Assembly (NCBI GenBank): GCA_903875045.1
Contig: CAIQUS010000062.1
Coordinates: 1 to 53,233 of the forward strand
Direction: 5' to 3'
DNA: 53,233 nt
Source: an uncultured Bacteroidales bacterium
GTDB taxonomy: Bacteria; Bacteroidota; Bacteroidia; Bacteroidales; FEN-979
Made by a program: the position numbers and the translations under genes. The notes beneath the pieces are model-generated. The model did no database searches and was not told where the DNA came from. It was given only the letters and a program-made list of their open reading frames with translations. Below, in pieces: positions 6,232 through 38,981 of the stretch (its first letter is position 1; the number at the start of each line of letters is the position of its first letter).

Positions 6232-7542
6232 TTACCTTTCCCGGTTATCTATGAATTTCTTTGGTTTTCTGCTGGTTTCAGGAAAAAGCATTTTTTGAAT
6301 GGTGCTTTCAGAGGCGAAAGTGATGAGGGGAGCTACCCTTAATTTTGCCCGAAAGTGGTCTTTGATGTCTTTTTCCTTTTCTTCACCGATGCCTTTTCCG
6401 CTCAGGTGTATGAGGATTTCATCTGTACCGATCTGGTTGGTATAAACTTCGACAATATAATTTGATATGTACTCAATGTTATCAAGAATATCGTAAAGTG
6501 CAGGCGGGAATAGGGTGGTACCTTTATATTTGATCATCTGGTTCTTTCTGCCAACTACCGGACCAAGTCGCATGGTATTTCGTCCACAGGCACAGGGAGT
6601 GATGAAGTGATGGCAAACATCGCCTGTTTTAAACCGAAGTAATGGCATTGCTTCCACGCCGAGGGTGGTAATGGTCACTTCACCGAGTTCACCTTCCCTG
6701 ACAGGCATGTTGTTGTCATCCAAAAATTCAACGATGATCAACTCCGGATGATGGTGTCCTCCGGTACCCTGGGAACATTCTGTGAAGGTTGTACTCATTT
6801 CAGTCGAAGCGTAGGTTGAAAACAGATTTAAATCCCATTTTTCCTTTATCTTTCTACCGAGTGTATTGAATGACAGATCGTTGTTGCGTAATGGCTCACC
6901 AATACAGATTGCATTTTTTATACTGGCTGACTTGTAGTCAATTCCGTTCTCCTCAGCATAGGCTACCATCTTCAGAATGAACGAAGGAACGGCAACAATC
7001 GCTGTAGGTTTAATTCGCCGGATGGTATCCCATTGAAGTTCAGGAATTCCATTGCCTACCCTTACAACACTTGCGCCGAGCATCCTGATCCCCAGGAAAT
7101 ATGCTAATCCTGCCATAAAGCGGCGGTCGATGGTCACCATGAGCTGATAAATATCATCTGCACTACCTCCCGCACACGTGAATGAAATGGCTTCGTTGTA
7201 GGCCAGCCGGTCAAGGTCATTGCTGGTAAGGGCAAATGTCACAGGATCACCAAGAGTTCCGGAAGTGGTAATGTAATCGATAATTTTCACCCTGGGCACG
7301 CAAATAAATTCATCATTGTGATGCTGAAGGTCGTCTTTCGTGGTAACCGGGATATTTACAAGGTCGGCAACAGTTTTAATTTTATGGATGTCAATGTGTT
7401 GTTTCCTGAATAAATTCCTGTAATAAGGGGAACTTGCCTGAAGATATTCCAGCGTTTCAAGAAGCTTATTATTTTGAAAGGCCGAAATATCCGCAAGTGA
7501 TTCTTTTTCAATTTGAGGAAAAAAGGTATCTGGTAGTTTCAT
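6232..7542 (-). CDS. PaaK-like AMP-forming carboxylate ligase
   Basis: The 436-residue protein belongs to the phenylacetate-CoA ligase branch of adenylate-forming enzymes. The ATP-binding loop is TTSGTLGDP at 92-100, followed by the Y/F-A-S-T-E motif (ASTEMS) and the hinge segment GELGEVTITTLG with LRFKTGD. A C-terminal domain contains GRKNQMIKYKG. Cys/His residues (CHHF, CACG) after the TGD motif resemble the metal-binding insertion of this branch. It would activate a carboxylic acid for loading onto CoA or the nearby ACP (8669-8953). It is the last gene of the long minus-strand block and lies 18 bases after the sulfotransferase. The substrate, an aromatic starter or a fatty acid, is not readable from sequence. 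Confidence 0.85.
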   Translation of the reverse strand: MKLPDTFFPQIEKESLADISAFQNNKLLETLEYLQASSPYYRNLFRKQHIDIHKIKTVADLVNIPVTTKDDLQHHNDEFICVPRVKIIDYITTSGTLGDPVTFALTSNDLDRLAYNEAISFTCAGGSADDIYQLMVTIDRRFMAGLAYFLGIRMLGASVVRVGNGIPELQWDTIRRIKPTAIVAVPSFILKMVAYAEENGIDYKSASIKNAICIGEPLRNNDLSFNTLGRKIKEKWDLNLFSTYASTEMSTTFTECSQGTGGHHHPELIIVEFLDDNNMPVREGELGEVTITTLGVEAMPLLRFKTGDVCHHFITPCACGRNTMRLGPVVGRKNQMIKYKGTTLFPPALYDILDNIEYISNYIVEVYTNQIGTDEILIHLSGKGIGEEKEKDIKDHFRAKLRVAPLITFASESTIQKMLFPETSRKPKKFIDNRER

Positions 7543-7560
7543 GATGAACGGATGAAATGT

Positions 7561-8712
7561 TTATTGATCCTTAAGGTAGTTGCAAGATTTCATCTGTGCC
7601 CAGAGTTCGGTCGCAATCATCGATTTTTCTTGTGGTGTCAGCGAAAAAACATTTTTACTAAAAGCAGAATTCTGCAGCATGAAATCTTTAATGCGGATTT
7701 CCAACCTGTCGGAAAATGGCAGCCCGAGTTCCCTGTAAACGCCTCGTAGTACCTCAACAGGAGAAGCTTCCAGATCTTCAAACCTCACATGGACCACGGT
7801 TCCTGAAGGTAAACTTTCACAATCTCTTTCAACCGTTTCCAGCAGGTTCTTCAAAAAACCTACCACCTCCGAAAATGCCGGTTTGGCCCCCATGGTATTC
7901 ATGGAGTTCTGATTTCCAAGAATGTTCCACATGTGGATGGTTGATGGGACGACACAATTGGGATGGCGCATAATATTGATAAACCTGGCATTTGGGAACA
8001 TTTCATGCAATAGTTTGATACGGAATGAATTGAATGGATTCTTGGAAACAATTCTTTTTCCGGTTTTGAAATGTATTTTTCTAAAAAAGTTCTTAACATC
8101 GCTTTTCCACTTAATCAGCGGTTCGCCGGATGGTACAAATGGGCTGCCATGGTTGAGAAAGTACGACTTTGTTTTAGGAAAAACCAGATTTTCCAAAGGT
8201 GAATAGTTTGTGATCCGATAAATTGCGTATTCATCTTCCTGGGGTTCGTCCATGCCAATTTTGACCTGGTCCATGGGGCGGTGTTCGGAAACCACTTGTT
8301 TGAATATCGGACGGTAATAGGGATAAGAAACCAGGAAACTGTCGGGCACTGCAACCTGGAAAAGGGAAGGTGTGCACAATTCCTCATCCAGGCTCATGAG
8401 TTGATGAAGAAAAGTTGAACCGGTTCTCCAGTGGCCAATGATAAAAACCGGATCATCCGGTGTAGGAGCATTTTTCAGTTGCTTTCCATACCTTGCTTTT
8501 TCGATCCAGGAAAAAACAGATGACCAGAAGGCACTCTGGACAAGAAAAACCAGACGAAAAAGTGTTTTCGAGTTACAGGCAATTATGTTTCTGCGGAGGA
8601 GCCGAAACAATTGGTCCAGTCTGATTCCGGCAGTCAGGTAGGAATCTTTCAATGCTGATGGAATTAGGTTAGGTTGTTGTGTTTGCTTGTTGCTCACCAA
8701 TGAACCGGGCAA
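7561..8712 (-). CDS. PAPS-dependent sulfotransferase family protein
   Basis: The 383-residue protein carries the sulfotransferase P-loop GHWRTGSTFLHQL (93-105), which binds the 5'-phosphosulfate of PAPS. Further on, MRHPNCVVPSTIHMW fits the 3'-phosphate-binding segment (R..P...V.S). The family transfers sulfate to hydroxyl or amine groups. In this locus an attractive but unproven target is the lipid product or its head group. The chosen ATG overlaps the 3' end of the ACP gene by 44 bases; no closer methionine precedes the P-loop, so the start could instead be a non-ATG codon. It lies between an ACP and a PaaK-like ligase in the same operon. Confidence 0.85.
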   Translation of the reverse strand: MPGSLVSNKQTQQPNLIPSALKDSYLTAGIRLDQLFRLLRRNIIACNSKTLFRLVFLVQSAFWSSVFSWIEKARYGKQLKNAPTPDDPVFIIGHWRTGSTFLHQLMSLDEELCTPSLFQVAVPDSFLVSYPYYRPIFKQVVSEHRPMDQVKIGMDEPQEDEYAIYRITNYSPLENLVFPKTKSYFLNHGSPFVPSGEPLIKWKSDVKNFFRKIHFKTGKRIVSKNPFNSFRIKLLHEMFPNARFINIMRHPNCVVPSTIHMWNILGNQNSMNTMGAKPAFSEVVGFLKNLLETVERDCESLPSGTVVHVRFEDLEASPVEVLRGVYRELGLPFSDRLEIRIKDFMLQNSAFSKNVFSLTPQEKSMIATELWAQMKSCNYLKDQ

Positions 8713-8953
8713 TGGAATTGATGGAACCGATCACCTGCCTGGCAAGGTTTTGATCTGCAATCCTGATGTCATAAGTCCTTTGAATGGCCATAATGATTTC
8801 AATTGCATCAACCGAATCAAGTGTGAGTGCATTATCGCCACCGAAAAGAGGTTTTTCGTCATCCACATCCTCAATGGCCACGTCGGTGATCGCCAGGGTA
8901 CGCATGATTAGTTCTTTAATTTCAAGTTTCAGTTCTTCTTCTGTTTTTAACAT
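8669..8953 (-). CDS. Acyl carrier protein (first of two in the locus)
   Basis: This is a small acidic protein of 94 residues. The phosphopantetheine attachment motif is LTLDSVDAIEI, with the carrier serine at residue 47 and the typical helix-2 pattern after it. The preceding GGDNA segment is longer than in FabC-type AcpP, which is common for dedicated secondary-metabolism carriers. It sits between the BtrH-like gene and the sulfotransferase, which suggests that it holds the acyl group acted on by those enzymes. It is distinct in sequence from the other ACP at 30818-31126. Confidence 0.9.
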   Translation of the reverse strand: MLKTEEELKLEIKELIMRTLAITDVAIEDVDDEKPLFGGDNALTLDSVDAIEIIMAIQRTYDIRIADQNLARQVIGSINSIARFIGEQQANTTT

Positions 8954-8974: not shown

Positions 8975-9982
8975 TTATTTAATTGCCTGCGACAGGGATT
9001 TGAAAAACCTTTCTTCCACATCGGCCCTGTCGTAAATCATTTCACTGAGTTGTTTAAGTTTTTCCGGGCCAAGATCCCTGTTTTTACCTATCCGGGCAGA
9101 GAAGAGTGAAATTTCCCTCCACCCGTCACCGATTTTCATCAATTCACCTGAAAGGTCCTTCAAGGCTGGTTTACCGATCAAACCCGCTGCCTGCTGAAGG
9201 AATGTTGCATACATGAACCGAAATCCAGCCCCACCGGTTCCCTGGTCTTCAAGCAGAATATTGATCTTCATGATTTCATGCGAAAGATGTTCGGTATCCC
9301 TGGCGAACTTTGGCCATTCAACCACTTTTTTAGCAAACATGCGCATCCCTTTTACTCCCAGGAAAGGAATTGGGATTTTTAACATGTAAAAGCAAGCTTT
9401 TTTTATTCCTTTGATGATCGCTGTGCTGTAATCGATATCGGCAGGTAGCTTCTCCAGATGAAAGATAAACCCCTTTGGTGACATATTTCCCCCGGCGAAC
9501 CTGCCTTTTTCCAATGAAGCCGCCTCAAGTTCAACCATTTTTGGAAAGTATGCATCGCTGATGGTATATCTTGTTCCTTCCTTACCGGTGATAACCAGAA
9601 AATGGACATTGATATGTACACGTTCCCAGGAAGGTACATAATCCATGTAAAAGAAATCAACCTGTGCAGCGGTCGGTATGTTTTGGCTGAGCAATTGATC
9701 AAGTGTCTGCTGCCCTTTGATAGGATCTTTAAAATCGTAGGATTTAAACTTTGCGCCAATCCGTTTTTCGATATTGGTACGCATTTGTCCCGGCTTGTTC
9801 CTGACAATAAAGGTAGGGAATGCAAAGGACTTCATTTTATGAAAATAACCGAAGAAAATTCCGCTTGCTATGCCGAATACCAGGGGCTCAGTGATGTTCA
9901 GGCCACCATGATTGAGCAGGGAGGTAATCGTTCCTGATTCACAGTGGGCGGCCATTTTATGGTTGAAATTTTGTATGATCAT
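8975..9982 (-). CDS. BtrH-type protein (BtrH N-terminal domain plus C-terminal helical domain)
   Basis: The 335-residue protein starts with the AAHCESGTITSLL signature of BtrH N-terminal domains (His13, Cys14). It continues with conserved FGIASG and HFLVITG segments of the papain/C39-like fold, then a helical C-terminal part. BtrH of butirosin biosynthesis transfers an acyl group from an acyl carrier protein to an amine. In Bacteroidota, homologs often sit in aryl-polyene-like loci. Here it directly precedes an ACP, fitting an ACP-to-acceptor acyltransfer. Its ATG overlaps the stop of the upstream gene by one base (TAATG), so translation is coupled. Confidence 0.8.
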   Translation of the reverse strand: MIIQNFNHKMAAHCESGTITSLLNHGGLNITEPLVFGIASGIFFGYFHKMKSFAFPTFIVRNKPGQMRTNIEKRIGAKFKSYDFKDPIKGQQTLDQLLSQNIPTAAQVDFFYMDYVPSWERVHINVHFLVITGKEGTRYTISDAYFPKMVELEAASLEKGRFAGGNMSPKGFIFHLEKLPADIDYSTAIIKGIKKACFYMLKIPIPFLGVKGMRMFAKKVVEWPKFARDTEHLSHEIMKINILLEDQGTGGAGFRFMYATFLQQAAGLIGKPALKDLSGELMKIGDGWREISLFSARIGKNRDLGPEKLKQLSEMIYDRADVEERFFKSLSQAIK

Positions 9983-10488
9983 TAAATTCGTTCTTCAATT
10001 TTGGTTATCACAACAAAAGGGTTGGCGGTTGCCATTTGATCGATTGAAATTTTCTCCCCTTTATTTTCCAGGATGAGCATCGATTCAAGGGTGCCATGAC
10101 TGTTTAGCAGCAGGGCCTGTAAGAGGTTCGCTGCCGGCACATTAAACACGGCAGCGTATTTACGAAGTTCATCAACAGTGGCATTGCCAAAGTGTTTCGG
10201 ATCAAGATGTTTCTTTACGCGTGATTTCCGGATCCCTGCCCTTGCAGCCAGTTCTGACAAGGACAGATCTTCAAAAACCATGTAAAATTTCACCGGACTG
10301 ATAAACCCGTTGGTAAGCTGGTCTCTTAGTTCCAACTCGAGGTTCCTGCGTTTATAAGTATAATCTTCCATGTAGTTGGCCGAAAGGTATGAACCTGTTT
10401 GCATAGGTCCATATTTTCCGTCATCCTTTTCTACATATAGGATCATCTGTTGTTCAGGATAATCCACAAATCCTTCCTTTTCTTTCAT
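9982..10488 (-). CDS. Small protein with HTH-like helical domain, function unknown
   Basis: The 168-residue protein has a mid-section LSLSELAARAGIRKSRVKKHL (about 83-103) that looks like the first helices of an XRE/Cro-type helix-turn-helix. An all-helical tail ends in FVVITKIEERI. The N-terminal 80 residues resemble nothing I recognise. It could regulate the locus, but its position deep inside the operon and its one-base overlap with the BtrH-like gene also allow a structural role. No membrane segment or signal peptide is visible. Confidence 0.6.
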   Translation of the reverse strand: MKEKEGFVDYPEQQMILYVEKDDGKYGPMQTGSYLSANYMEDYTYKRRNLELELRDQLTNGFISPVKFYMVFEDLSLSELAARAGIRKSRVKKHLDPKHFGNATVDELRKYAAVFNVPAANLLQALLLNSHGTLESMLILENKGEKISIDQMATANPFVVITKIEERI

Positions 10489-10512: not shown

Positions 10513-11727
10513 CTATTTTGGTTTTGCAAAAATAGCAATGCTGGTCGTCATTGCAAAACCAAAAAACAGGATCAGTAAAACCGTATTTGGCAGGATACTG
10601 GCAATATTTCCCTCCCGTACGAAGAGGTTCAGGTAGTTATCGATTCCCCAGCGGATGGGGGAGAGGTAGCTGATATATTGAATAAAACCGGGCATGAGGT
10701 TGACTGGCAGAAAAGTGCCACTGATAACGCCAAGCAAAACCACCATCACCGAACCGAACAGTGCGGCCTGGTTATGGGTGGTAGCAGCGGCACCTACAAT
10801 GATACCGAAGCCAACGGCAGCAAGGGACGCCGCAATTGTTGCGATGACAATCGCCAGATACTGTTGCCCAAGGTCTAAAGGAGGAAAACCAAAAAATGTT
10901 GGGAAAACCCATGTTCCGATTCCCATCATCAGGATGAACTGAACCAGGCACACCAGCATGTAGGCGATAACTTTACCTCCCAGGATGGCTGATAGTTTCA
11001 CTGGCAGTGAACGAAGGCGCTGAAAGCTCCCTTCATTCTTTTCTGTCACCAGGCTTCCGGCGAGGGGAATTACGATAAAAAACATCGCAAACAAAATAAA
11101 TCCGGGGACATTATTCTGGATCACATTGGGTTGAATGGCAGATTTTTCCCTGAGCGCATAAGATTCCCTGACCGGAGGTAATTTTTGCATGGCCTCTGCC
11201 ACGATAGAGCGGATGGCAGGCTGCATGTTGCCGGGGAGATTACTCAGGATATTGTTCATGGCCTCTTTGTTCTGTGTGCCTTTGATAATATAAGTTAACG
11301 AGTTGATAACCGAGGATTTAAATGTTTCCTGCAAGGTGGGGTCGATCAGCAGGACAATTGCAGAGTCAGGGTGTGAAATGATCACGCCAAACTTGTAATC
11401 TCCTTGACCAATAAGGGCTTTGGCCTGAGAATGGCTTACTGGAACATTTCCGATGTAAGCAACCGGTTTAAAAAAACCTGATGAGTCGATGCTTGAGTGC
11501 AGTTTTTGCGAAAACGGGCTCTTCAATTCATCTACGAACAGGATTCTTGTTCGTGCATTCTGACTTTTAAGGGCATTTTCCTGTGCAAGGGTTACCACGA
11601 AAATCAACAACACGGGCATCAGGAACAGGATGATCAAGCCTGGGAAGTCTCTGAGAAGTAATAAAAATTCTTTATTAAGAATGGACCAGAATTTTCGCAT
11701 GTTGCAAAAATAGGAAGTTTTATCCAT
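10513..11727 (-). CDS. ABC-2 type transporter permease
   Basis: The 404-residue membrane protein has the ABC-2 export topology: one N-terminal helix (about 30-50), a large extracytoplasmic domain (about 55-205), then five or so hydrophobic helices with LPVNLMPGFIQYISYLSPIRW near 340-360. The signature phrase FFIVIPLAGSLVTEKNEGSFQRLRSLP is typical. It should work with an ATP-binding subunit, but none is encoded in the window. The start at 11727 overlaps the methyltransferase stop by eight bases (ATGGATAA), a geometry repeated elsewhere in this locus. An internal ATG at 11700 (MRKFWSIL) is the alternative. Confidence 0.88.
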   Translation of the reverse strand: MDKTSYFCNMRKFWSILNKEFLLLLRDFPGLIILFLMPVLLIFVVTLAQENALKSQNARTRILFVDELKSPFSQKLHSSIDSSGFFKPVAYIGNVPVSHSQAKALIGQGDYKFGVIISHPDSAIVLLIDPTLQETFKSSVINSLTYIIKGTQNKEAMNNILSNLPGNMQPAIRSIVAEAMQKLPPVRESYALREKSAIQPNVIQNNVPGFILFAMFFIVIPLAGSLVTEKNEGSFQRLRSLPVKLSAILGGKVIAYMLVCLVQFILMMGIGTWVFPTFFGFPPLDLGQQYLAIVIATIAASLAAVGFGIIVGAAATTHNQAALFGSVMVVLLGVISGTFLPVNLMPGFIQYISYLSPIRWGIDNYLNLFVREGNIASILPNTVLLILFFGFAMTTSIAIFAKPK

Positions 11728-14645: not shown

Positions 14646-17033
14646 TTAAAATTGTATCCTCCAGGTCCCCATTGGGAAAAATCCCATGGTCAGGAAATTT
14701 CTTACCTCACCTGTTTTGGGGTCAATCCGCTGGAGTGAGATGTTGGTAAAACTGGTCCGGTATTGTAAATCCATGAAAAATTCAATGTTATACCCTGGAA
14801 GATTTCTTCTGATCCCGAAACGGAAGGCAATGCGTTTGTAATCAGGAAAACGGGGATGATAGGCCTGTTCCCAATCATATACCGGTTCTCCTGAAGCTAC
14901 GGTGCCATTCACATCGTAAGGGATATATGGGCTTCCTCCCGCCCAGGTTGCACGTAACCCCAGTGACATCACGCCCCATTTTCGTTTTCCCATGATAAAT
15001 TCATATCCGCCTGCAGCATTCAATGCGTAGTTCACATTAAATGCTGAGTTTCTTGTAATGTTGTCGTACCCGTAATAGGTTGAGTTGAAAACTGAGGCCG
15101 AAAACAGAAAGTAATAGTTTTTTCTGAAAAATCGTTCGAAAGTGGTTTCCAGCCCATAATTCTGACCGGTTCCCCGATTCACCAGGCTGTCAGAATATTG
15201 CCGATCGATAAAAAAGCCGTGCCCCTGGTTGCTGAGGGCATATTCCGGGATCGAACTTTTGGTCGGTATCCTGAATAAATACTGATAATATAATTCGGTT
15301 TTGAATCGAAGGTCATTGTTTAGCAAATAGTTATACCCAATCGCGATTTGAGCGCTCCGCGTGAACCCCAGATCAAGGTTGGGTTGTGATACCCGGCCGC
15401 CGGGTTGATGTGACAGTATAAAATAGGTTACCCTGGGTTGCATCTGACTGTAAAGCCCGGTTCCAAAATTGACCGAATGTTTCGTACTGATGATCCAGTC
15501 GAACCCAAGCCTTGGTTCCACCGACCATGAATTGTTCATGGTAAGCCATGATCCGAAAATCCCCAGTGTAGAAGAGAATTTTTCGCTGAAAATATGCTGC
15601 CATTGCGAAAATCCACGTAACAGTTGCATACTTTCCCTCGAACCGGTATTTATAAGGAAGTTGCCTTTATACATCATGCTGTCGGCAAATGACATCTGAT
15701 ATAAATCCCAATAAATGCCAGATGTCATGGAGTTCAGGGGTGAGAATTTCTTTGTCAGTATGGAAGAGAATGAATACTTGACTTCGGTTGATCTTTCACC
15801 AGCCCATCGGGAAGGGACCTGTTGAATGTCAGAAAAGGTATCGATCCGGGTGCGGGTATCGGAAGCAACCAGATAAAGCATGTTTTTCCAACGGAGATTA
15901 TTTGTCAGGAAAATCTGGTGAGAGACCCCAAAAACACCAAGGTTTGACCCATTCGAGAGGTCTTCGCCAAAATCAGGGAAAAGCCATTCAGATTGATTTT
16001 TCTTACTGTCAAAAAGTTCAATATAACTCAAACCACCTATCCCGGTGATAGTGAAGGTACCTGATTTCCGTGTAGGAATGTTTATTTTGACATTAAGATC
16101 CTGATATTTCGGGACGATTCCGACGTTGATATTAAACCAGTTAAGAAATTGCAGCGGAGAATACCGGTATGAAATCAGGTAGGAGGCCCGGCTTTTTTTT
16201 GAAAACGGGCCTTCTGTTCCGAATTCGAGCCCGTTCCAGCCAACTTCAAACCAGTATTCCCGTTTTTCGGCATTCCCGTTCCGCATTTTCAGGTCAAAAA
16301 TACCGGCCAGTGTATTGCCATATTGGGCGGGGAACGCACCCGTGAAAAAATCGGAATTGGTCACGAGGTTGTTATTCAACACCGTAACAGGACCACCTGT
16401 GGTACCTACTGCTGCAAAATGGTTTGGATTTGGAATCTCCATGTCGTCGATGCGCCATTGCAAGCCGGTCGGAGAATTGCCCCGGACAATGATATCATTC
16501 CGGTTATCGATGCCACTCGTTACACCAGCAAAATTAGCCGCCATTCTTGCAGGGTCGTTGTAGCTTCCGGCGAACCTGAAGGTTTCATCAACACTGAAGG
16601 ATCTTACGCTCACCGTTGCCATTTTATTCAGGGCTTCATCTTTGCGGTAGCCGGCCCTTATTTCAACTTCTCCGGTATTGACGGCCGTTTCCTGCATCAA
16701 AATGGTTGTCATCGTCTCTTTACCACTGACTACAATCAGTGCATCGGTCAGTATTGGTGCATAACCCATGTACGTAACCCTGAGTTGGTATTGCCCAATT
16801 TTTACAGGAGGAAGCCGAAAATGGCCATGACTGTCGGTAACCGTACCAATGAGAGGGTCAGAACCGGGAATAGTAATTGTTGCTCCGGTGAGCGGCATTT
16901 GAGTTTGAACATCGATGACAATACCCTGGATGCACGATTTGAGCACCTGTTGCGCAAAACCCGGATGGGTAAACAATAGAAATGGAAAAAATAATGAAAC
17001 AAAGAGATACCAGCAGATTTTGTAATGAACCAT
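14646..17033 (-). CDS. TonB-dependent outer-membrane receptor
   Basis: The 795-residue protein has a signal peptide ending GFAQ. A carboxypeptidase-D-like domain follows (about 34-115; GIVIDVQTQMPLTGATITIPG and TDSHGHFRLP), then a plug domain (about 130-235; NDIIVRGNSPTGLQWRIDDMEIPNPNHF) and a long aromatic-rich beta barrel ending in an aromatic residue (WRIQF). The domain order is that of SusC-like/CarboxypepD_reg receptors, but the length is short for SusC and no SusD partner is present. Its place inside a biosynthetic operon is unusual; it may recover or sense the locus product or a cofactor such as a cobalamin. The ligand is unknown. Confidence 0.85.
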   Translation of the reverse strand: MVHYKICWYLFVSLFFPFLLFTHPGFAQQVLKSCIQGIVIDVQTQMPLTGATITIPGSDPLIGTVTDSHGHFRLPPVKIGQYQLRVTYMGYAPILTDALIVVSGKETMTTILMQETAVNTGEVEIRAGYRKDEALNKMATVSVRSFSVDETFRFAGSYNDPARMAANFAGVTSGIDNRNDIIVRGNSPTGLQWRIDDMEIPNPNHFAAVGTTGGPVTVLNNNLVTNSDFFTGAFPAQYGNTLAGIFDLKMRNGNAEKREYWFEVGWNGLEFGTEGPFSKKSRASYLISYRYSPLQFLNWFNINVGIVPKYQDLNVKINIPTRKSGTFTITGIGGLSYIELFDSKKNQSEWLFPDFGEDLSNGSNLGVFGVSHQIFLTNNLRWKNMLYLVASDTRTRIDTFSDIQQVPSRWAGERSTEVKYSFSSILTKKFSPLNSMTSGIYWDLYQMSFADSMMYKGNFLINTGSRESMQLLRGFSQWQHIFSEKFSSTLGIFGSWLTMNNSWSVEPRLGFDWIISTKHSVNFGTGLYSQMQPRVTYFILSHQPGGRVSQPNLDLGFTRSAQIAIGYNYLLNNDLRFKTELYYQYLFRIPTKSSIPEYALSNQGHGFFIDRQYSDSLVNRGTGQNYGLETTFERFFRKNYYFLFSASVFNSTYYGYDNITRNSAFNVNYALNAAGGYEFIMGKRKWGVMSLGLRATWAGGSPYIPYDVNGTVASGEPVYDWEQAYHPRFPDYKRIAFRFGIRRNLPGYNIEFFMDLQYRTSFTNISLQRIDPKTGEVRNFLTMGFFPMGTWRIQF

Positions 17034-29893: not shown

Positions 29894-30802
29894 TCAGGTT
29901 TGCGGGACTGAATTCAAAGCATAAAAGCGATAACTGCCATCCACGAATTTTGAATTCTTTACCAAACCTTTGGAGGATCCGCATTCGATGAATACTGATA
30001 TTTTGTTTTCCAGCATCGCATTCATTGTACGAAACCAATTCAAAGGTTGAAAAAGATTTCTGATTAACTCCTCCCTGATCAATGCAGGGGTTGACAAAGT
30101 AACCTGGTCGATTAAGGAGATCATCGGGGTTTCAGGGGCTTTTATCTCAAAATGGCTGATTTGGCGGGCAAATTCCATGGCACCACTTTTCAGATGACTT
30201 GAATGGTAAGGAATGGACACTGCCAGGTCACGTGTATGCAAGGCACCCTCCTCCTTAGCCAAATCCATCAGTTTACGGATATCATCAAGATTCCCTGAAA
30301 CAACATAAGAGTATGGGGCATTTTGGTTGGTAATCTCAATCTTTAAGGAAGAATGATCAATAAGTTTTTGAATATCAACATCATCAAGTCCTATCAGGGT
30401 TCCCATGCCAAAGAATTCGTTGTTCAGGGATGCATGAAGGGTCTGGTAAGCGATTTTGATCAGGAACAAACCTGTTTCAAAGGAGATGGCACCTGCATCG
30501 AATACGGATGCGTAGATACCCATACTGTAGCCGGCGTTTAAGGTGGAGTATAACCCATTCATCTTCAATACTGAAGAGGCCGCGCAACTATAAATATACG
30601 TAAGATATTGGGTTCGCAATTCATCATCCTGGAATGTTCTGCCGGTGAAATTGAATTTTTCCAGTTCCTGATCAATGGCACTGGCAGCACGTAAGCGTAA
30701 TTCATCGAACCGATCATTAAAACCAGGGATGTTCCGCCCGGGATGATCGGTATAATCGCTGTTAAAAGCAGGAAAAATAAATGCTGAATGAGTATCTGAC
30801 AA
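29894..30802 (-). CDS. FabD-like malonyl/acyl-CoA:ACP transacylase
   Basis: The 302-residue protein has the acyltransferase nucleophile elbow as GYSMG (Ser93) instead of the usual GHSLG, and the catalytic His in the segment IPYHSSH (His200). The C-terminal IECGSSKGLVKNS corresponds to the GPGKVL.. segment of FabD. It would load malonyl or another acyl group onto the ACP encoded just upstream (30818-31126). It is the last gene of block A. The Tyr next to the serine is unusual for malonyl-specific enzymes, so acyl specificity is uncertain. Confidence 0.8.
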   Translation of the reverse strand: MSDTHSAFIFPAFNSDYTDHPGRNIPGFNDRFDELRLRAASAIDQELEKFNFTGRTFQDDELRTQYLTYIYSCAASSVLKMNGLYSTLNAGYSMGIYASVFDAGAISFETGLFLIKIAYQTLHASLNNEFFGMGTLIGLDDVDIQKLIDHSSLKIEITNQNAPYSYVVSGNLDDIRKLMDLAKEEGALHTRDLAVSIPYHSSHLKSGAMEFARQISHFEIKAPETPMISLIDQVTLSTPALIREELIRNLFQPLNWFRTMNAMLENKISVFIECGSSKGLVKNSKFVDGSYRFYALNSVPQT

Positions 30803-30817: not shown

Positions 30818-31126
30818 TTATTGTTCTATTTCCAAAAGCCGGTTTTCGTGTTCAATGATGAGCAATTGCATTTCAATCAATTGCCCGATGGTTGAAACCG
30901 GGTGTTTCACAGCATATTTGCCAATAATTTTCAATTCAATATCGAGTTTGAACTTTTTCTTGAATATCTCTATCAGTTCCAGAAACATCAGCGAATCTCC
31001 ATCGAGGTCGTTGATAATACTGGTGTTTTCATTGATCTGTGCAATGTCAACTTCACATTCTTCGGCAAAAAAACTGTAAACGATCTCTTTGACTTCATTC
31101 TTAATACTCTCTGTTATTATAGCCAT
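30818..31126 (-). CDS. Acyl carrier protein (second of two in the locus)
   Basis: This acidic carrier protein of 102 residues has the phosphopantetheine site LDGDSLMFLEL, with the serine at residue 45. I chose the ATG at 31126 (MAIITES) because a perfect TATTTTTG element at 31145-31152 places transcription start downstream of the other in-frame ATG at 31147. The C-terminal tail after the carrier core is longer than in AcpP and ends in ENRLLEIEQ. It sits between a KAS II gene and a malonyltransferase-like gene, so it is probably the chain-elongation carrier. Confidence 0.9.
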   Translation of the reverse strand: MAIITESIKNEVKEIVYSFFAEECEVDIAQINENTSIINDLDGDSLMFLELIEIFKKKFKLDIELKIIGKYAVKHPVSTIGQLIEMQLLIIEHENRLLEIEQ

Positions 31127-31144
31127 GGTATCTTTACTTTTTTG

Positions 31145-31152: not shown

Positions 31153-31166
31153 TGATTTTTTTTTTA

Positions 31167-31184
31167 CCCAGACTAAAGTCTGGG
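31167..31184. repeat. Perfect 8-base-arm palindrome between KAS II and ACP genes
   Basis: CCCAGACT and AGTCTGGG form an 8-bp stem with a two-base centre. On the minus strand it is followed by a long A run rather than a T run, so it is not a standard terminator. It could be a short interspersed palindromic element or an mRNA processing hairpin. Confidence 0.6.
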
Positions 31185-31193
31185 ATTGGTCGG

Positions 31194-32411
31194 TCACAAA
31201 TGCTTCTTCAGCACAAGGGTAGCATTGTGTCCGCCAAAACCAAATGAATTGGACAGCGCCACCCTGATATCTTTGACCCTCGATGTATTCGGAATGAAAT
31301 CGAGGTCAAGGTCAGGATCCGGATTGTTGTAATTAATAGTAGGAGGGAGGACACCGCTTCTGAGGCTCATTGCAGTAATGATTGCTTCGATGGCACCGGC
31401 GGCACCAATGGTATGACCGAGCATCGACTTTGAAGATGACACGGGGATTTGATAGGCAATCTCACCGAAAACCTTTTTAATGGCCATGGTTTCATAACGG
31501 TCATTTAATTCTGTTGAGGTTCCGTGCGCATTGATATAACCAACCTCATCCTTACTGATTCCGGCATTTTTGATGGCCTGCTCAATCGTTTTAGCCATGC
31601 CTTCGCCATCCTTCATGGGAGCCATGATGTTGTATCCCTCGCTGGTAAGTGCATAACCGGCAACTTGTGCATGGATGAAGGCATTTCTTGCAATTGCATG
31701 ATCTTTCGACTCAAGCACCAATATTCCGGCGCCTTCACCGATCACGAATCCATCCCGGTCTTTTGAAAAGGGTTTGCTGGCCTGTTCGGGTGGATCATTG
31801 GCAATAGATAAGGCATAAAGAGCATTGAATCCCTGGATCTCCTCAAAATTGATGATGGAATCTGCTCCTCCGACAATGACAATATCTGCCTGGCCATTTT
31901 TGATCATCTCATAGCCAAACGCGATGGCATAAGCTGAAGAAGCGCAGGCTGTATTTACGGCATAATTGGGCCCCATCAGCTGGTATTCAAGTGATATCCA
32001 GGCAGGCATGGAATTGGTCATGGTTTTAAAAACGGTATTTTGCGGGGTGGTATCCTTTTCAGCACTTGAATTACCTGTATTTACCACACCCATTATTACG
32101 CTGCAACGCGTACGGTCAACCTGAGAAAAATCGATTCCCGAATTTTGAACCGCGATCTTTGCAGCAGTCACACACATGCGGGTAACCCTGGTCATCTGAC
32201 TGCCAGCTCTTTTTTTGATGTAATTCCGCGACAATTCCTCGAATGCAGGCGAAACTTCAGCAGCGACCCTTGTCGTAAGCGAACTTGCATCGAACATAGT
32301 GATGTTTTTCACCCCGCTTTTTCCTGCAACAAGATTGTTCCAGTTTTCCTCCAATGACAATCCCAGGGATGAAATAAGGCTCATCCCTGTAATGACTACT
32401 TCTTTTGGCAT
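31194..32411 (-). CDS. Beta-ketoacyl-ACP synthase II-like (KAS II)
   Basis: The 405-residue condensing enzyme has the full Cys-His-His set: Cys156 in VNTACASSA, His296 in NAHGTST and His333 in SMLGHTIGAAG. A complete elongating enzyme is therefore expected, not a chain-length factor. The length and C-terminal FGFGGHNATLVL motif match FabF. Only one KAS II-type enzyme is present in the locus, without a separate chain-length-factor partner such as those in aryl-polyene loci. It is followed by its likely carrier protein and transacylase, and starts eight bases after the cytochrome gene. Confidence 0.93.
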   Translation of the reverse strand: MPKEVVITGMSLISSLGLSLEENWNNLVAGKSGVKNITMFDASSLTTRVAAEVSPAFEELSRNYIKKRAGSQMTRVTRMCVTAAKIAVQNSGIDFSQVDRTRCSVIMGVVNTGNSSAEKDTTPQNTVFKTMTNSMPAWISLEYQLMGPNYAVNTACASSAYAIAFGYEMIKNGQADIVIVGGADSIINFEEIQGFNALYALSIANDPPEQASKPFSKDRDGFVIGEGAGILVLESKDHAIARNAFIHAQVAGYALTSEGYNIMAPMKDGEGMAKTIEQAIKNAGISKDEVGYINAHGTSTELNDRYETMAIKKVFGEIAYQIPVSSSKSMLGHTIGAAGAIEAIITAMSLRSGVLPPTINYNNPDPDLDLDFIPNTSRVKDIRVALSNSFGFGGHNATLVLKKHL

Positions 32412-32419
32412 CTGATTTT

Positions 32420-32812
32420 TTATTTCTTTAAACTACCGGCCCACCTGCAAACCATATCTTTTTCGGCCTGAGTCGGAACATCATTCGGGTTATTGGCACA
32501 CCACTTTTTTGGTGGCATCGATCCTTTGGTTAAAACCTTGCAAATGGCCTGGGCTTTACTATACTGTTTTTCAGAATCATATTTTTCCCAAGCGGAGAAA
32601 TTGATTTTTCCCTTTGCCATGAAATTTCCATCATCTGCATGACAATCCATACAGGCTCTTTGAACCAACTTATGGATACTGTCGGGAAGTGCTGTGCCCG
32701 GCCCTGCAGATGTAGATTTTTTAGATCCGATAACTGTCTGCGGGTTAAAAATAAGAGCAAAACCAAATACAAGGCTGAATGCAATGATTGATAAGAAAGC
32801 AGCTTTTTTCAT
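32420..32812 (-). CDS. Small exported c-type cytochrome (heme-binding domain protein)
   Basis: The 130-residue protein has an N-terminal hydrophobic signal (about 4-24) and one covalent heme site, CMDCH (about 54-58). A later GSMPPKKW offers the axial methionine, as in the haem_bd family of Bacteroidota. It is expected in the periplasm as an electron carrier. Its place between a 3-hydroxyacyl-CoA dehydrogenase gene and a KAS II gene is odd for fatty-acid genes; it may accept electrons from a periplasmic or membrane step. A perfect promoter element lies just upstream. Confidence 0.85.
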   Translation of the reverse strand: MKKAAFLSIIAFSLVFGFALIFNPQTVIGSKKSTSAGPGTALPDSIHKLVQRACMDCHADDGNFMAKGKINFSAWEKYDSEKQYSKAQAICKVLTKGSMPPKKWCANNPNDVPTQAEKDMVCRWAGSLKK

Positions 32813-32833
32813 TTTATTTTATTTTTATTTTTA

Positions 32834-32866
32834 CAAAGATAGGCTGAATTGAAACAGAATCGCAAA
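32834..32866 (-). promoter_or_regulatory. Bacteroidota-type promoter upstream of the cytochrome-KAS II-ACP-transacylase genes
   Basis: On the minus strand TTTG (32863-32866) is followed after 21 bases by TATCTTTG (32834-32841), both matching the phylum consensus. The leader would be about 18 bases. Confidence 0.65.
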
Positions 32867-32883
32867 AAAAATCCTTCAATTTG

Positions 32884-33933: not shown

Positions 33934-33989
33934 TACCTGCTTTTTTGTAATTCACAATTCGTTGGTCAATATTCAATATTCTCTGTTCA

Positions 33990-35576: not shown

Positions 35577-35580
35577 TGCA

Positions 35581-35676
35581 CTCGCCCGCTCGCCCGCTCA
35601 CCCGCTGACCCGTTCACCCGCTCACCCGCTCACCCGTTCACCCGCTCACCCACTCACCCGCTCACCCGCTCACCCG
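35581..35676. repeat. 12-copy 8-base tandem repeat (CTCACCCG), G-quadruplex-like on the minus strand
   Basis: Twelve consecutive octamers, mostly CTCACCCG with single-base variants, fill the gap between the KAS III-like stop (35678) and the radical SAM start (35576). On the transcribed-sense minus strand they read CGGGTGAG, giving GGG tracts separated by five bases. Confidence 0.9.
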
Positions 35677-35677
35677 T

Positions 35678-36802
35678 TTACCATCTCCTAATCACATACC
35701 CCGCTTGCATAAACTTACTCACCTCGGTAACAAAACTAAGAATAATGTCACCTTCTGCCAACTGTTCCTCCTTACGGATCTTGTCGAGACATAACAGTGC
35801 CATCGGAGGGCCGATGTATCCCATGGAAGCCATTTTAGAGTACAACGTTTTCCGGTCGATCCCTAATACTTCGCATTCATCCATAATCAGTTCCGAAATG
35901 TGTTTTGACGGGAAGTTCACCTGGAAATATTTAATCTTTTCAACATCCACCGGGTGTTTTGCCAGCATGCGTTTGAGTCCTTTGAGGAAAACTGATCCAT
36001 CGGGTTCATGAAAATTTTCCCGTAGCTCTTCCTGAAACATCTGAGCAAGGTGATGGTATCCGAGTTCAAATTCTTCACGCGGGTTCATATAGTAAGCCGG
36101 ACGCTTGTTCCCCATGGCCGATGGCTTGTTTCCGCCAACGGATTCAATATAATTGTATTCCACAAACAACCCGTTTTGACAAGCATCTGCAGCCTGCAGC
36201 AAAATGGCCGCTGCACCATCACTCAGAAAATAACGTAAAAACAACTCCTCCTTTTTAACAAGTGGTTGATTGTAATATTCGGCTACCAATTCAGACGAAG
36301 AGATGCCCGAAGAGATAATCAGTGCATTGTTATAGCGGCCATTCCTGATCAGGTCTGCCCCCAGTAACAGTGCCTTGTAAGCAGAAGTGCAGTTGGCATG
36401 AACAGAAATTTCAGCACATTGTTCAATGCCTAATGCCTCCTGAATGCGGACACTTGCGGTGGGCATCTGATCCTGGTGTGCGCTGCCATAAACGATCAGG
36501 TCGATATCCGCCGGGGAAATTCCTGCATCAGCAATTGCTTCCATCGCGGCTTTTACCGACATGGTTATATTGTCTTCGGTAAATTTTCTGGAGACAGGAT
36601 CAATGGCAAAATGGTAAAAGTCCACTTCGAGCAATTCCTTCATTAAAATTTTGATCCGTTTAAGCCATTTTCTGATCTTCTCCGGGGCAAATGTCAATTC
36701 ACCAAGGTACTTGTCAACCTCATCGGCCGGGATAGGGGCACCAGGCAGAAAGGATCCACTCCCAACCACCTTAACAAATATTTTGCTATCAATCTTTTGC
36801 AT
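35678..36802 (-). CDS. KAS III-like (FabH-type) condensing enzyme
   Basis: The 374-residue thiolase-fold protein has the active Cys in VHANCTSAYKAL (Cys138) and FabH-like segments VYGSAHQDQMPTASVRIQ and FLSDGAAAILLQ. The C-terminal part reads YFQVNFPSKHISE and SMGYIGPPMALLCL, where ordinary FabH has HQAN and GNTSAAS. The usual His and Asn are therefore not at their standard positions, although a His is close by. The enzyme may start chains, use an unusual substrate or do a head-to-head condensation. Its first 14 bases overlap the 3' end of the upstream hydratase gene. Confidence 0.82.
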   Translation of the reverse strand: MQKIDSKIFVKVVGSGSFLPGAPIPADEVDKYLGELTFAPEKIRKWLKRIKILMKELLEVDFYHFAIDPVSRKFTEDNITMSVKAAMEAIADAGISPADIDLIVYGSAHQDQMPTASVRIQEALGIEQCAEISVHANCTSAYKALLLGADLIRNGRYNNALIISSGISSSELVAEYYNQPLVKKEELFLRYFLSDGAAAILLQAADACQNGLFVEYNYIESVGGNKPSAMGNKRPAYYMNPREEFELGYHHLAQMFQEELRENFHEPDGSVFLKGLKRMLAKHPVDVEKIKYFQVNFPSKHISELIMDECEVLGIDRKTLYSKMASMGYIGPPMALLCLDKIRKEEQLAEGDIILSFVTEVSKFMQAGYVIRRW

Positions 36803-37436
36803 GCAAAGGCTTTAAGAATTTATGGAGATAAACACTCCGTTCGGCGCTCTTGAAATTAACAGGTAGGGCATTTGCGAAAGCAATGGAAACCGGAATGACA
36901 TCATTTTTCGGGAAGGTTCCATCAACAAGCCCCATCTCTTTGGCCTCACTTGCTGAAAAGGTCACACCTCGTAAAATGATTTCAATTGCCCTGGCCTTAC
37001 CGGCAAGTGCCGCAACTTTTTGAATACCTCCAATTCCGGGCATCAGGTTATAGGTCGACTCCGGTAATCCAAGAACTGCATCATTCGCACATAACCGGAA
37101 ATGGCTAAAAAGTGCCAGTTCAAAGGCAGAGCCAAGGCAAACACCACGGATGGCAGAAATAACGGGAATTTCCAACTGTTCAAGCATCACAAAGGCACGG
37201 TAGTTTTCAATCATGGTCCGATGATCAACGTTGCGTAACAATTCAGCGATATCAGCACCGGAGGAATAATGCCTGCCACTTCCGCTGATAATAACAGCCC
37301 TGAGATTTTCCATGGTTGATATTTCATTTACCAGAACCTGCATCTCCTGAAAGAACTCCATGGTCATGGTGTTCGACGGAGGCTGGTTAAGTATCAATCG
37401 CCCGATATCTTGTTCAATGGTCCATTGAAGGGTCAT
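36789..37436 (-). CDS. Enoyl-CoA hydratase/isomerase (crotonase fold), copy 1
   Basis: The 215-residue protein is short for the family (usually about 255-265) but has both oxyanion-hole regions: SSGADIAELL near 55-65 and RGVCLGSAFELAL near 95-110. Both glutamates expected for hydratase action are present, in SAFELAL and in GLPESTYNLMPGIGG. The missing part is the C-terminal helical region. It forms a tandem with a second crotonase gene only three bases upstream, and it overlaps the KAS III-like start. It probably acts on an enoyl or 3-hydroxyacyl thioester in the pathway. Confidence 0.87.
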   Translation of the reverse strand: MTLQWTIEQDIGRLILNQPPSNTMTMEFFQEMQVLVNEISTMENLRAVIISGSGRHYSSGADIAELLRNVDHRTMIENYRAFVMLEQLEIPVISAIRGVCLGSAFELALFSHFRLCANDAVLGLPESTYNLMPGIGGIQKVAALAGKARAIEIILRGVTFSASEAKEMGLVDGTFPKNDVIPVSIAFANALPVNFKSAERSVYLHKFLKPLHAKD

Positions 37437-37439
37437 GGT

Positions 37440-38201: not shown

Positions 38202-38205
38202 GGTT

Positions 38206-38595
38206 TTAAATTCTGAATAGAATTTCAGCGGGAACATCCCGGGGAATTTTCTCTTTATCGATGAAAATCAGCTTTGTAGTAGCCCTGGCTGAAGTAAGTC
38301 CAGTAGTCAGATTCAGGATTTTCTGGTGAAAGATGAGGTAGGGTTTTTCCTCCGTACAAACCGTTTCTATCTGAAGCTCATCGAATAGTTTTATTTCCCG
38401 CTGATAACGAATATGAACATCGGTAACGACGGGCAGATTGTCATTTTCCTTCAGGAACGTGTATAGTTCCAACTGTCGGAAGAACTCCCAACGGGCATGT
38501 TCAAAATAATTAAGATAAACCGCATTGTTGATGTGATTATATGAATCAAGCTCATAGCCGCGTGCAGTAAACCTGACAGACAGTTTTTTTGGCAT
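38206..38595 (-). CDS. Hotdog-fold acyl thioesterase (4HBT/YbgC-like)
   Basis: The 129-residue protein has the hotdog signature with Asp17 and the segment YELDSYNHINNAVYLNYFEHARWEF, read in parts. This is the 4-hydroxybenzoyl-CoA thioesterase/YbgC pattern. It hydrolyses an acyl thioester and could release the chain from CoA or ACP. It is coupled by TAATG to the FabZ-like gene upstream, and the second crotonase starts four bases after its stop. No signal peptide is present. Confidence 0.88.
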   Translation of the reverse strand: MPKKLSVRFTARGYELDSYNHINNAVYLNYFEHARWEFFRQLELYTFLKENDNLPVVTDVHIRYQREIKLFDELQIETVCTEEKPYLIFHQKILNLTTGLTSARATTKLIFIDKEKIPRDVPAEILFRI

Positions 38596-38981
38596 TATTC
38601 TGAAAATTCAAATTTTCCCTTAAATTTTAAAAATACCGAGGCTCCTGATGCGATAGATGCAGTGACAGAAAGGTTTTGATCGATGTCAGGTTTTATCAGC
38701 ATGTTGAATTCAAGCAGCGGATTTACATCAGGATTGATCATCGACAGGAATTTAATGTTGTCTGCCTCTTTCAGCATAACAGGATGATGAACGGCGGTTT
38801 CAACGAGTTCTTTTAATATTTGAATCTGGCATACTCCGGGAACTACCGGGTTTCCGGGGAAATGCCCGTGATAAATCGGGTGGCTGCCATTAAGTGAGAC
38901 ATGCACGATACATTTTTGCTGGGCGGTGTTGGATTCATCAACTGTAAAGGATTGAATATCAAAAAAAAATCCGGATAACAT
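38595..38981 (-). CDS. FabA/FabZ-like 3-hydroxyacyl-ACP dehydratase
   Basis: This small hotdog protein of 128 residues carries the FabZ signature HGHFPGNPVVPGV (38-50), including the catalytic His40. FabZ normally has a catalytic Glu further on; here LKELVETAVHH provides acidic residues, so activity is likely but not certain. It is the first gene of block A, with a TATTTTTG promoter element in front and a terminator of the previous gene just before that. It overlaps the thioesterase by one base. Confidence 0.85.
   Translation of the reverse strand: MLSGFFFDIQSFTVDESNTAQQKCIVHVSLNGSHPIYHGHFPGNPVVPGVCQIQILKELVETAVHHPVMLKEADNIKFLSMINPDVNPLLEFNMLIKPDIDQNLSVTASIASGASVFLKFKGKFEFSE

What the first reader, a model, noticed from the sequence alone, without database searches (positions are those of the whole stretch)
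6232..38981. Candidate undescribed lipid/polyene pathway with four B12-type radical SAM enzymes
Seen: about 27 genes in three blocks combine two ACPs, KAS II, KAS III-like, FabZ-like, two crotonases, a hydroxyacyl dehydrogenase, a transacylase, a CrtI-like oxidoreductase, four CX3CX2C radical SAM proteins with B12-binding-like N-termini, an O-methyltransferase, a sulfotransferase, a BtrH protein, a C45-like protein and an MMPL-PlsC-methyltransferase fusion. Known: parts of this set occur in Bacteroidota aryl-polyene and flexirubin loci. Four cobalamin radical SAM enzymes, a sulfotransferase and the lack of an ammonia-lyase do not fit those. The mix of ACP enzymes, radical SAM and CrtI-like proteins also recalls candidate ladderane gene sets. 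Inference: the product is a heavily modified, possibly sulfated outer-membrane lipid of new type.
Basis: partly seen in the sequence, partly recalled or inferred. Interest (0 to 1): 0.85.

Follow-up and report, generated by a model that had tools for sequence, protein, structure and literature searches.

The report
Flexirubin-type lipid supercluster with B12 enzymes
This is a large, conserved gene cluster of uncultured (probably anaerobic) Bacteroidales that looks like a heavily modified relative of the flexirubin pigment pathway and carries four vitamin-B12-type radical enzymes of unknown job; its product has not been identified.

Summary
The gene list is right: 28 ORFs at 6232-38981, with four CX3CX2C radical SAM proteins, each with a B12-binding domain. 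Stretches from 22 same-family genomes carry the cluster whole or in part; rSAM4 is 82-97% identical.

It does not stand alone. FlxY and DarH pass flexirubin cut-offs. The 'missing' ammonia-lyase FlxA, and FlxB, lie on contig C140 of the same genome. FlxA is over cut-off in 37 of 43 family genomes; of 34 that also match KAS3, 10 have both on one contig. In a second lineage most parts, but not rSAM2 or rSAM3, form one contiguous run.

So it is best read as a flexirubin/aryl-polyene-type pathway with a second acyl-chain module and B12 radical SAM enzymes. It is not canonical flexirubin: 0 of 43 genomes reach the DarB cut-off; KAS3, a divergent DarB relative, keeps the catalytic Cys but not the His and Asn in 40 of 40 sequences. 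Nothing found supports ladderanes, though anammox proteins were not compared. Radical SAM chemistry and product are inferred; host anaerobiosis was not tested.

The parts
6232..7542 (-). FlxY, 4-coumarate-CoA-ligase-type acyl-CoA ligase
   Evidence: NF053551 716.8 bits, cut-off 520; FlxY activity reported for C. pinensis (PMC3992019 passages)
7561..8712 (-). Sulfotransferase (variable in relatives)
   Evidence: Pfam Sulfotransfer_3 113.5 bits
8669..8953 (-). ACP1, acyl carrier protein
   Evidence: Pfam PP-binding 26.5 bits, cut-off 20.8
8975..9982 (-). DarH, BtrH-related acyltransferase
   Evidence: NF053550 322.5 bits, cut-off 300
9982..10488 (-). DarG-like protein
   Evidence: NF053545 54.3 bits, below cut-off 170; NF053536 51.5, below 70
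10513..11727 (-). ABC-2 export permease
   Evidence: Pfam ABC2_membrane_3 119 bits
11720..12802 (-). O-methyltransferase
   Evidence: Pfam Methyltransf_2 168.2 bits
12799..14607 (-). g602, orphan protein, probably a passenger
   Evidence: no Pfam/NCBIfam hit; in 49 of 198 order genomes, own included; in 39 of the 40 neighbourhoods looked at it lies outside this cluster
14646..17033 (-). Protein with CarboxypepD_reg-like N-terminal domain (outer-membrane type, inferred)
   Evidence: Pfam CarbopepD_reg_2 52.8 bits
17054..17440 (-). g128, orphan partner of rSAM4
   Evidence: no Pfam hit for the window protein at E<=0.5; beside rSAM4 in 12 of 16 loci outside the family; AF2 pLDDT 86
17503..18774 (-). 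rSAM4, B12-binding radical SAM, most conserved gene of the cluster
   Evidence: Pfam B12-binding 38.5 and Radical_SAM 30 bits, both over cut-off; orthologues at 66% or more in 18 of 198 order genomes (own included), next best 38%
18804..20501 (-). C45 family autoproteolytic acyltransferase/hydrolase
   Evidence: NF040521 219.8 bits, cut-off 85
20494..22074 (-). CrtI-like FAD oxidoreductase
   Evidence: TIGR02730 98.4 and TIGR02734 71.4 bits, below cut-offs
22016..25963 (-). MMPL exporter - PlsC acyltransferase - methyltransferase fusion
   Evidence: Pfam MMPL, Acyltransferase, Methyltransf_25; a match in 43 of 43 family genomes, own included, some partial
25872..27059 (-). GT2 glycosyltransferase - DUF2062
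   Evidence: Pfam 91.1 and 78.3 bits
27118..28458 (+). rSAM1, B12-binding radical SAM, HpnR-like
   Evidence: TIGR04367 153.9 bits, below cut-off 650
28458..29885 (+). rSAM2, B12-binding radical SAM, TIGR04072-like; absent in three relatives
   Evidence: TIGR04072 328.3 bits, cut-off 360; rSAM1 followed directly by AT in G400, G406, G415
29894..30802 (-). AT, malonyl-transacylase-like, GYSMG serine motif
   Evidence: TIGR03131 126.8 and TIGR00128 121.1 bits, below cut-offs; motif read by eye
30818..31126 (-). ACP2, acyl carrier protein (DSL motif)
   Evidence: NCBIfam ACP hits up to 33.5 bits, below cut-off; 72-89% identical in 19 of 22 relatives
31194..32411 (-). FabF, KAS II
   Evidence: NF005589 447.5 bits, cut-off 387; TIGR03150 456.4, below 493.75
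32420..32812 (-). Haem_bd domain protein
   Evidence: Pfam 50.8 bits
32884..33933 (-). HCDH, 3-hydroxyacyl dehydrogenase
   Evidence: Pfam 3HCDH_N 122 bits
33990..35576 (-). rSAM3, B12-binding radical SAM, HpnJ/BchE-like
   Evidence: TIGR03471 99.1 and TIGR02026 93.8 bits, below cut-offs
35678..36802 (-). KAS3, StlD/DarB-related KAS III with Cys138 but Asn296 and Tyr329 for the catalytic His and Asn
   Evidence: NF005293 104.4 bits, cut-off 450; residues in 40 of 40 distinct sequences; alignments
36789..37436 (-). ECH2, crotonase
   Evidence: Pfam ECH_1 118.4 bits
37440..38237 (-). ECH1, crotonase
   Evidence: Pfam ECH_1 122.6 bits
38206..38595 (-). 4HBT thioesterase
   Evidence: Pfam 4HBT_2 71.9 bits
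38595..38981 (-). FabZ/ApeI-like dehydratase
   Evidence: ApeI-like 22.8 and FabZ 25.8 bits, below cut-offs

Best explanation
The region is about half of a flexirubin/aryl-polyene-type supercluster, probably adapted to life without oxygen; the other half lies on contig C140 of the same genome. SHOWN (by homology and linkage): FlxY and DarH over curated cut-offs, FlxA (tyrosine ammonia-lyase) and FlxB over cut-offs on C140, recurring linkage of both halves in relatives, a second acyl-chain set (AT, ACP2, FabF, HCDH, ECH1, ECH2, TE) with a DarB-related KAS III (KAS3), and conserved B12 radical SAM genes. INFERRED: FlxA makes 4-coumarate, FlxY activates it, and the C140 ketosynthases, ACP and FlxB extend it to an aryl-polyene acyl chain. 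AT loads ACP2; FabF, HCDH and the crotonases/FabZ build a second chain that stays unsaturated because no enoyl reductase is in the cluster. KAS3, with only the Cys of its triad, takes up an acyl chain and transfers or joins it without decarboxylation, in place of or beside the DarB step. The B12 radical SAM enzymes put methyl groups on unactivated or aryl carbons (rSAM1, rSAM2, TIGR04072 type) or do oxygen-free oxidation or ring formation (rSAM3, rSAM4). DarH, C45 and PlsC esterify the parts; the ABC and MMPL systems move the lipid to the outer membrane; O-methyl and, in some species, sulfate groups cap it.
For: FlxY 716.8>520, DarH 322.5>300. FlxA 830.9>700 and FlxB 400.4>340 on C140. FlxA over cut-off in 37 of 43 family genomes, own included; of the 34 with FlxA over cut-off and a KAS3 match, 10 have both on one contig (recount), 21-43 kb apart. 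In G394 and G397 the C140-type genes start about 3.2 kb after FabZ. In G799, G803 and G806 (second lineage) most parts form one contiguous run. In 22 other family genomes rSAM1 was found in 21, rSAM3 in 19, rSAM4 in 18, rSAM2 in 17. rSAM4 orthologues in 18 of 198 order genomes with a gap from 66% to 38%, and a neighbour from this gene set in 15 of 16 loci outside the family, 14 if the CarboxypepD_reg protein is left out. CX3CX2C kept in every distinct sequence collected, window included: 21 (rSAM1), 17 (rSAM2), 17 (rSAM3), 42 (rSAM4). No DarB over cut-off in 43. KAS3 residues in 40 of 40.
Against: In the window's own genome, and in 23 other genomes of the 34, FlxA and KAS3 are on different contigs; these are draft assemblies, so this neither shows nor excludes linkage. 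Three of 43 family genomes have no KAS3 match but keep FlxA, so the modules can part. In the second lineage at least one genome (G802) has DarB over cut-off (608 bits) as well as KAS3, and all ten KAS3-bearing genomes there have a further 23-25% hit of DarB length, so KAS3 is not simply a stand-in for DarB. rSAM2 and rSAM3 were not found in the 60 kb stretches of that lineage. No radical SAM protein of the window reaches an equivalog cut-off, so their chemistry is by resemblance only. TIGR04072 genes also occur in Flammeovirga, so the family is not tied to the Bacteroidales. Whether the hosts are anaerobes was not tested. No product was measured.
Confidence: 0.62

Rival explanations
1. Two pathways side by side: an ordinary aryl-polyene pathway (C140) and an independent lipid made by the AT-ACP2-FabF-HCDH-ECH-KAS3-rSAM module, sharing exporters and acyltransferases.
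For: Separate contigs in 24 of the 34 family genomes with both markers; KAS3 matches missing in 3 of 43 family genomes that keep FlxA; DarB over cut-off beside a KAS3 genome complement in G802; rSAM4 orthologues in 8 order genomes that have no TIGR04072 match at E<=1e-70.
Against: FlxY, DarH, MMPL and GT2 sit inside the window cluster, and FlxA/FlxB sit between the halves in the second lineage; rSAM4 lies within 1.5 kb of FlxA, FlxY or DarH-type genes at some loci of other families.
Confidence: 0.25
2. A canonical flexirubin cluster (aryl polyene esterified to a dialkylresorcinol) with extra decorations.
For: FlxA, FlxB, FlxY and DarH over cut-offs; acyltransferase, glycosyltransferase and exporter genes as in flx clusters.
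Against: 0 of 43 family genomes reach the DarB cut-off and the 38 lower hits are KAS3 itself; no match to the ORF that stands beside DarB and is taken for DarA, 0 of 43; KAS3 lacks the catalytic His and Asn.
Confidence: 0.07
3. A ladderane or anaerobic polyunsaturated-lipid cluster related to that of Kuenenia and Desulfotalea.
For: rSAM2 resembles TIGR04072 (328 bits); the overall set (radical SAM, phytoene-desaturase-like, ligase, lipid-transport membrane protein, GT, FabF) resembles the one in Rattray 2009.
Against: rSAM2 is below the TIGR04072 cut-off; TIGR04072 relatives lie mostly with FlxA and FlxB relatives (43 and 52 of 65 loci of at least 12 kb), so the family does not mark ladderanes; antiSMASH 'ladderane' calls are reported in many non-anammox phyla without a link to the lipids (PMC9902471 passages). 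Anammox proteins were not compared.
Confidence: 0.03

Closest known systems
Flexirubin biosynthesis (flx/dar genes of Chitinophaga pinensis and Flavobacterium johnsoniae)
   Same: FlxA, FlxB, FlxY and DarH by curated cut-offs; several ketosynthases and a thioesterase; acyltransferase, glycosyltransferase and exporter genes as described in PMC3992019 (passages)
   Different: No DarB over cut-off in the family; second acyl-chain module with KAS3; four B12 radical SAM genes in the window plus one on C140; sulfotransferase; C45 protein
Aryl polyene clusters (APE/xanthomonadin type)
   Same: Ammonia-lyase and ligase start, type II ketosynthases, ApeI-like dehydratase (weak), MMPL and GT2; the comparison with APE clusters is recalled
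   Different: DarH/DarG, KAS3 module and radical SAM set; APE rules were not run (no antiSMASH here)
Candidate ladderane FASII clusters (Kuenenia, Desulfotalea; Rattray 2009)
   Same: Radical SAM, phytoene-desaturase-like, CoA-ligase, lipid-transport membrane protein, GT and FabF genes together
   Different: Ammonia-lyase partner in the genome; rSAM2 below TIGR04072 cut-off; no direct sequence comparison was made
StlD/DarB-type ketosynthases
   Same: KAS3 aligns over nearly its whole length with StlD (residues 14-366) and keeps the active-site Cys
   Different: 104 bits against a cut-off of 450; His to Asn and Asn to Tyr in 40 of 40
B12 radical SAM enzymes HpnR, HpnJ, BchE, tryptophan C2-methyltransferase (TsrM, name recalled)
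   Same: Domain layout and CX3CX2C; profile A1 of TIGR04072 relatives hits the tryptophan C2-methyltransferase best in the PDB (167.9 bits)
   Different: None of the four window proteins reaches an equivalog cut-off

Membership tests
Flexirubin biosynthesis | Tyrosine ammonia-lyase FlxA | tested here: met
   On contig C140, 830.9>700 bits; 37 of 43 family genomes over cut-off; not inside the window
Flexirubin biosynthesis | 4-coumarate-CoA ligase FlxY | tested here: met
   716.8>520 bits, window 6232-7542
Flexirubin biosynthesis | Reductase FlxB | tested here: met
   C140, 400.4>340 bits
Flexirubin biosynthesis | DarB that makes the dialkylresorcinol | tested here: not met
   0 of 43 family genomes over the 550-bit cut-off; the 38 lower hits are at KAS3 coordinates
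Flexirubin biosynthesis | DarA | tested here: inconclusive
   0 of 43 with an ORF of G811; the query is taken for DarA only because it stands beside DarB, no Pfam or NCBIfam model names it; it finds relatives beside DarB-like genes in two genomes of the second lineage at 41-45%
Flexirubin biosynthesis | Aryl-polyene ester of a dialkylresorcinol as product | not testable with these tools
   needs chemistry
Aryl polyene clusters | antiSMASH arylpolyene rule | not tested
   antiSMASH is not on hand
Ladderane clusters | TIGR04072 member over cut-off in the cluster | tested here: not met
   rSAM2 328.3<360; the C140 protein is over it (413 bits) but lies beside FlxA/FlxB
Ladderane clusters | Orthology with Kuenenia cluster proteins | not tested
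StlD/DarB ketosynthases | Cys-His-Asn triad (recalled) | tested here: not met
   Cys138 kept; Asn296 and Tyr329 instead, 40 of 40 (alignments)
B12 radical SAM enzymes | CX3CX2C plus B12-binding domain | tested here: met
   Pfam B12-binding over gathering score in all four; motif kept in all distinct sequences collected

The most novel reading that the evidence does not exclude
The KAS3 module and the B12 radical SAM enzymes build a new kind of ring-bearing or multiply methylated lipid unit without oxygen, in place of the dialkylresorcinol of flexirubins, with KAS3 acting as a non-decarboxylating acyl-joining enzyme and rSAM4-g128 as an essential, so far unnamed enzyme pair. That would be a new class of outer-membrane polyene lipid of Bacteroidales.
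Probability: 0.25. Interest if true: 0.8.

Novelty: new variant of a known kind. Interest (0 to 1): 0.58.

Why it matters
It shows that flexirubin-type pathways occur in uncultured Bacteroidales in a form rich in B12 radical SAM enzymes, and that the radical SAM family named after ladderanes (TIGR04072) is, in many Bacteroidota, a neighbour of ammonia-lyase polyene genes. That family occurs in a named strain, Flammeovirga aprica JL-4, so its function could be tested outside anammox bacteria. KAS3 and the rSAM4-g128 pair are conserved, uncharacterised proteins with a clear pathway context.

Tried and rejected
Ladderane reading: looked for through TIGR04072 and rejected as the main reading; anammox sequences were not reached. 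g602 as a cluster-specific gene: rejected. KAS3 as plain DarB: rejected. Radical SAM genes as passengers: rejected. A plasmid search with g602 found nothing. g128 function: sequence searches gave nothing usable (weak hits only, the best PDB ones to designed helical proteins), and its predicted fold could not be searched. A fold of rSAM4 was not obtained. Papers: searches (open-access PMC only). Abstract, outline and part 1 of 2 of the results and of the discussion: PMC2649909. Passages only: PMC3992019, PMC13142503, PMC9902471. PMC4790861: start of abstract in a listing (47) and a term search with no hits (74). Everything else was seen as search listings only.

Corrections made on re-reading my calls: the notebook entry says g128 stands beside rSAM4 in 13 of 16 loci; a recount gives 12. 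One search counted the window protein twice in some sets; one search gives distinct counts (KAS3 40 instead of 41, rSAM1 21, rSAM2 17, rSAM3 17, rSAM4 42). One search tabulated 15 genomes that I had picked after seeing the lists, 10 of them on one contig; the full recount is 10 of 34. For that, confidence in the best explanation was lowered from 0.65 to 0.62 and the two-pathway rival raised from 0.22 to 0.25. The DarA test was lowered to inconclusive because no model names the query.

Full report
What is there. Between 6232 and 38981 I take 28 ORFs as genes, in three transcription blocks (6232-27059 minus, 27118-29885 plus, 29894-38981 minus). The four radical SAM proteins all carry CX3CX2C and a B12-binding domain over Pfam's gathering score. 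None reaches an NCBIfam equivalog cut-off: rSAM1 is nearest HpnR (153.9 of 650), rSAM2 nearest TIGR04072 (328.3 of 360), rSAM3 nearest HpnJ (99.1 of 577.6), rSAM4 nearest TIGR04013 (60.8 of 251). Two proteins do pass flexirubin-type models: FlxY (716.8 of 520) and DarH (322.5 of 300).

The missing ammonia-lyase. The same genome has a second cluster on contig C140 with FlxA, the tyrosine ammonia-lyase (830.9 of 700), FlxB (400.4 of 340), three ketosynthase-type proteins, a thioesterase and an ABC ATPase, relatives of ACP1, DarH, DarG and the ABC permease, and a TIGR04072 protein over cut-off (413 bits). FlxA is over cut-off in 37 of the 43 family genomes searched, the own one included. Of the 34 genomes with FlxA over cut-off and a KAS3 match, 10 have the two on one contig, 21-43 kb apart; in 24, the window's own among them, they are on different contigs of draft assemblies. 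In G394 and G397 the C140-type genes begin about 3.2 kb after FabZ.

Conservation. KAS3 has a match in 40 of 43 family genomes and the MMPL-PlsC-methyltransferase protein in 43 of 43, some partial, own included. I fetched stretches from 22 other genomes of the family: rSAM1 was found in 21, rSAM3 in 19, rSAM4 in 18, rSAM2 in 17. Many stretches end within the cluster, so absences are mostly not informative; three genomes (G400, G406, G415) lack rSAM2 with rSAM1 and AT side by side. In an even sample of the phylum only the own genome and one 26% hit matched KAS3 at E<=1e-20 (2 of 395), but that sample holds few members of the order.

A second lineage. That most are anaerobes is my inference; it was not tested, and Flammeovirga is among them. 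Of all 80 loci, 58 carry a FlxB relative, 48 a FlxA relative and 10 an rSAM4 relative; of the 65 of at least 12 kb, 52, 43 and 10. In 14 genomes chosen from these loci, KAS3 at 70-73% identity was found in 10, one of them partial. In G799, G803 and G806 most parts lie in one contiguous run: AT-ACP2-g128-rSAM4-sulfotransferase-ACP1-DarH-DarG, then FlxA-FlxB-ketosynthase-TIGR04072-DarG-DarH-ABC-ketosynthases, then FabZ-GT2-MMPL-CrtI-C45-FlxY, then FabF-HCDH-KAS3-ECH2-ECH1-TE; rSAM1 is seen at one end in G799 and G806, and the O-methyltransferase at the other end in G799 and G803. rSAM2 and rSAM3 were not found in these stretches.

rSAM4 and g128. rSAM4 is the most conserved gene. In 198 genomes of the order, 18 (own included) have an orthologue at 66% identity or more, and the next best protein is at 38%. 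By comparison of the two listings, 10 of these 18 also have a TIGR04072 match at E<=1e-70 and 8 do not. At 16 loci outside the family, g128 stands beside rSAM4 in 12, and some gene of this set within about 1.5 kb in 15, or 14 if the CarboxypepD_reg protein is left out. The window's g128 has no Pfam hit and a confident AF2 model (pLDDT 86), whose fold could not be searched.

KAS3. It aligns with StlD and with three DarB-type proteins, two of which I scanned and which pass the DarB cut-off (656.5 and 607.9 of 550). Its Cys138 is kept. Where StlD and these proteins have a His it has Asn296 (a deposited StlD variant, 5gk2, has Ala at that place), and where they have Asn it has Tyr329. These residues hold in 40 of 40 distinct KAS3 sequences, window included. 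The catalytic roles of the His and Asn are recalled from KAS III knowledge. So KAS3 should not decarboxylate in the normal way (inference). The family has no DarB over cut-off (0 of 43). An ORF beside DarB in G811, taken for DarA by its place only (no model names it), has no match in the 43 genomes, while it finds relatives beside DarB-like genes in G802 and G806. G802, of the second lineage, has DarB over cut-off as well as KAS3, so KAS3 is not simply DarB's replacement in general.

How it may work. Reported for C. pinensis: FlxA and FlxY start the flexirubin polyene (PMC3992019 passages). Inferred here: C140 enzymes extend the aryl polyene; AT, ACP2, FabF, HCDH and crotonases build a second chain, unsaturated for want of an enoyl reductase in the cluster; KAS3 transfers or joins; the radical SAM enzymes methylate or oxidise without oxygen. 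B12 radical SAM enzymes that do not methylate are described as forming rings or rearranging (PMC13142503 passages). Profile A1, built mostly from TIGR04072 members, has a tryptophan C2-methyltransferase as its best PDB match (167.9 bits), and labelled methionine was fed in the C. pinensis study, so aryl C-methylation is a reasonable guess for that family, no more.

Ladderanes. The resemblance rests on rSAM2's sub-cut-off hit and on the overall gene list of Rattray 2009. Since TIGR04072 relatives sit mostly with FlxA and FlxB relatives in Bacteroidota, Flammeovirga aprica included (L244), the family name is not evidence for ladderanes here. I did not compare with anammox proteins.

Verdict. A real, conserved and, as far as my searches show, undescribed variant of flexirubin/aryl-polyene clusters. 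'Undescribed' rests on the listings in an open-access library only. The product and the radical SAM chemistry remain open.

Noticed in passing
window 44974-45071 (-): TPP riboswitch (68.2 bits) just upstream of a TonB-dependent receptor gene (42526-44979), a likely thiamin-regulated outer-membrane receptor.
   Followed up: no
window 265-1638 (+): IS66-type transposase near the left end of the window.
   Followed up: no
window 2577-2921 (+): 114-aa ORF matching only the C-terminal part of an amidohydrolase; probably a gene remnant.
   Followed up: no
own genome C60:133.7-137.1 kb (L008): Three tandem radical SAM proteins related to rSAM3 (32-34%) near a relative of the CarboxypepD_reg protein of the cluster; another radical SAM locus of unknown role.
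   Followed up: partly
own genome C161:19.5-29 kb (L006): Five radical SAM matches within 10 kb.
   Followed up: no
window 12799-14607 (-) and L034-L073: g602, a 602-aa protein with no Pfam or NCBIfam family, in 49 of 198 order genomes, mostly outside this cluster.
   Followed up: partly
L270:4008-4379 (-): Small ORF beside AT in G799 that by eye begins like a holo-ACP synthase; possibly a dedicated phosphopantetheinyl transferase.
   Followed up: no
L244 and L247 (Flammeovirga): TIGR04072-type radical SAM gene inside an ammonia-lyase polyene cluster of Flammeovirga strains.
   Followed up: partly
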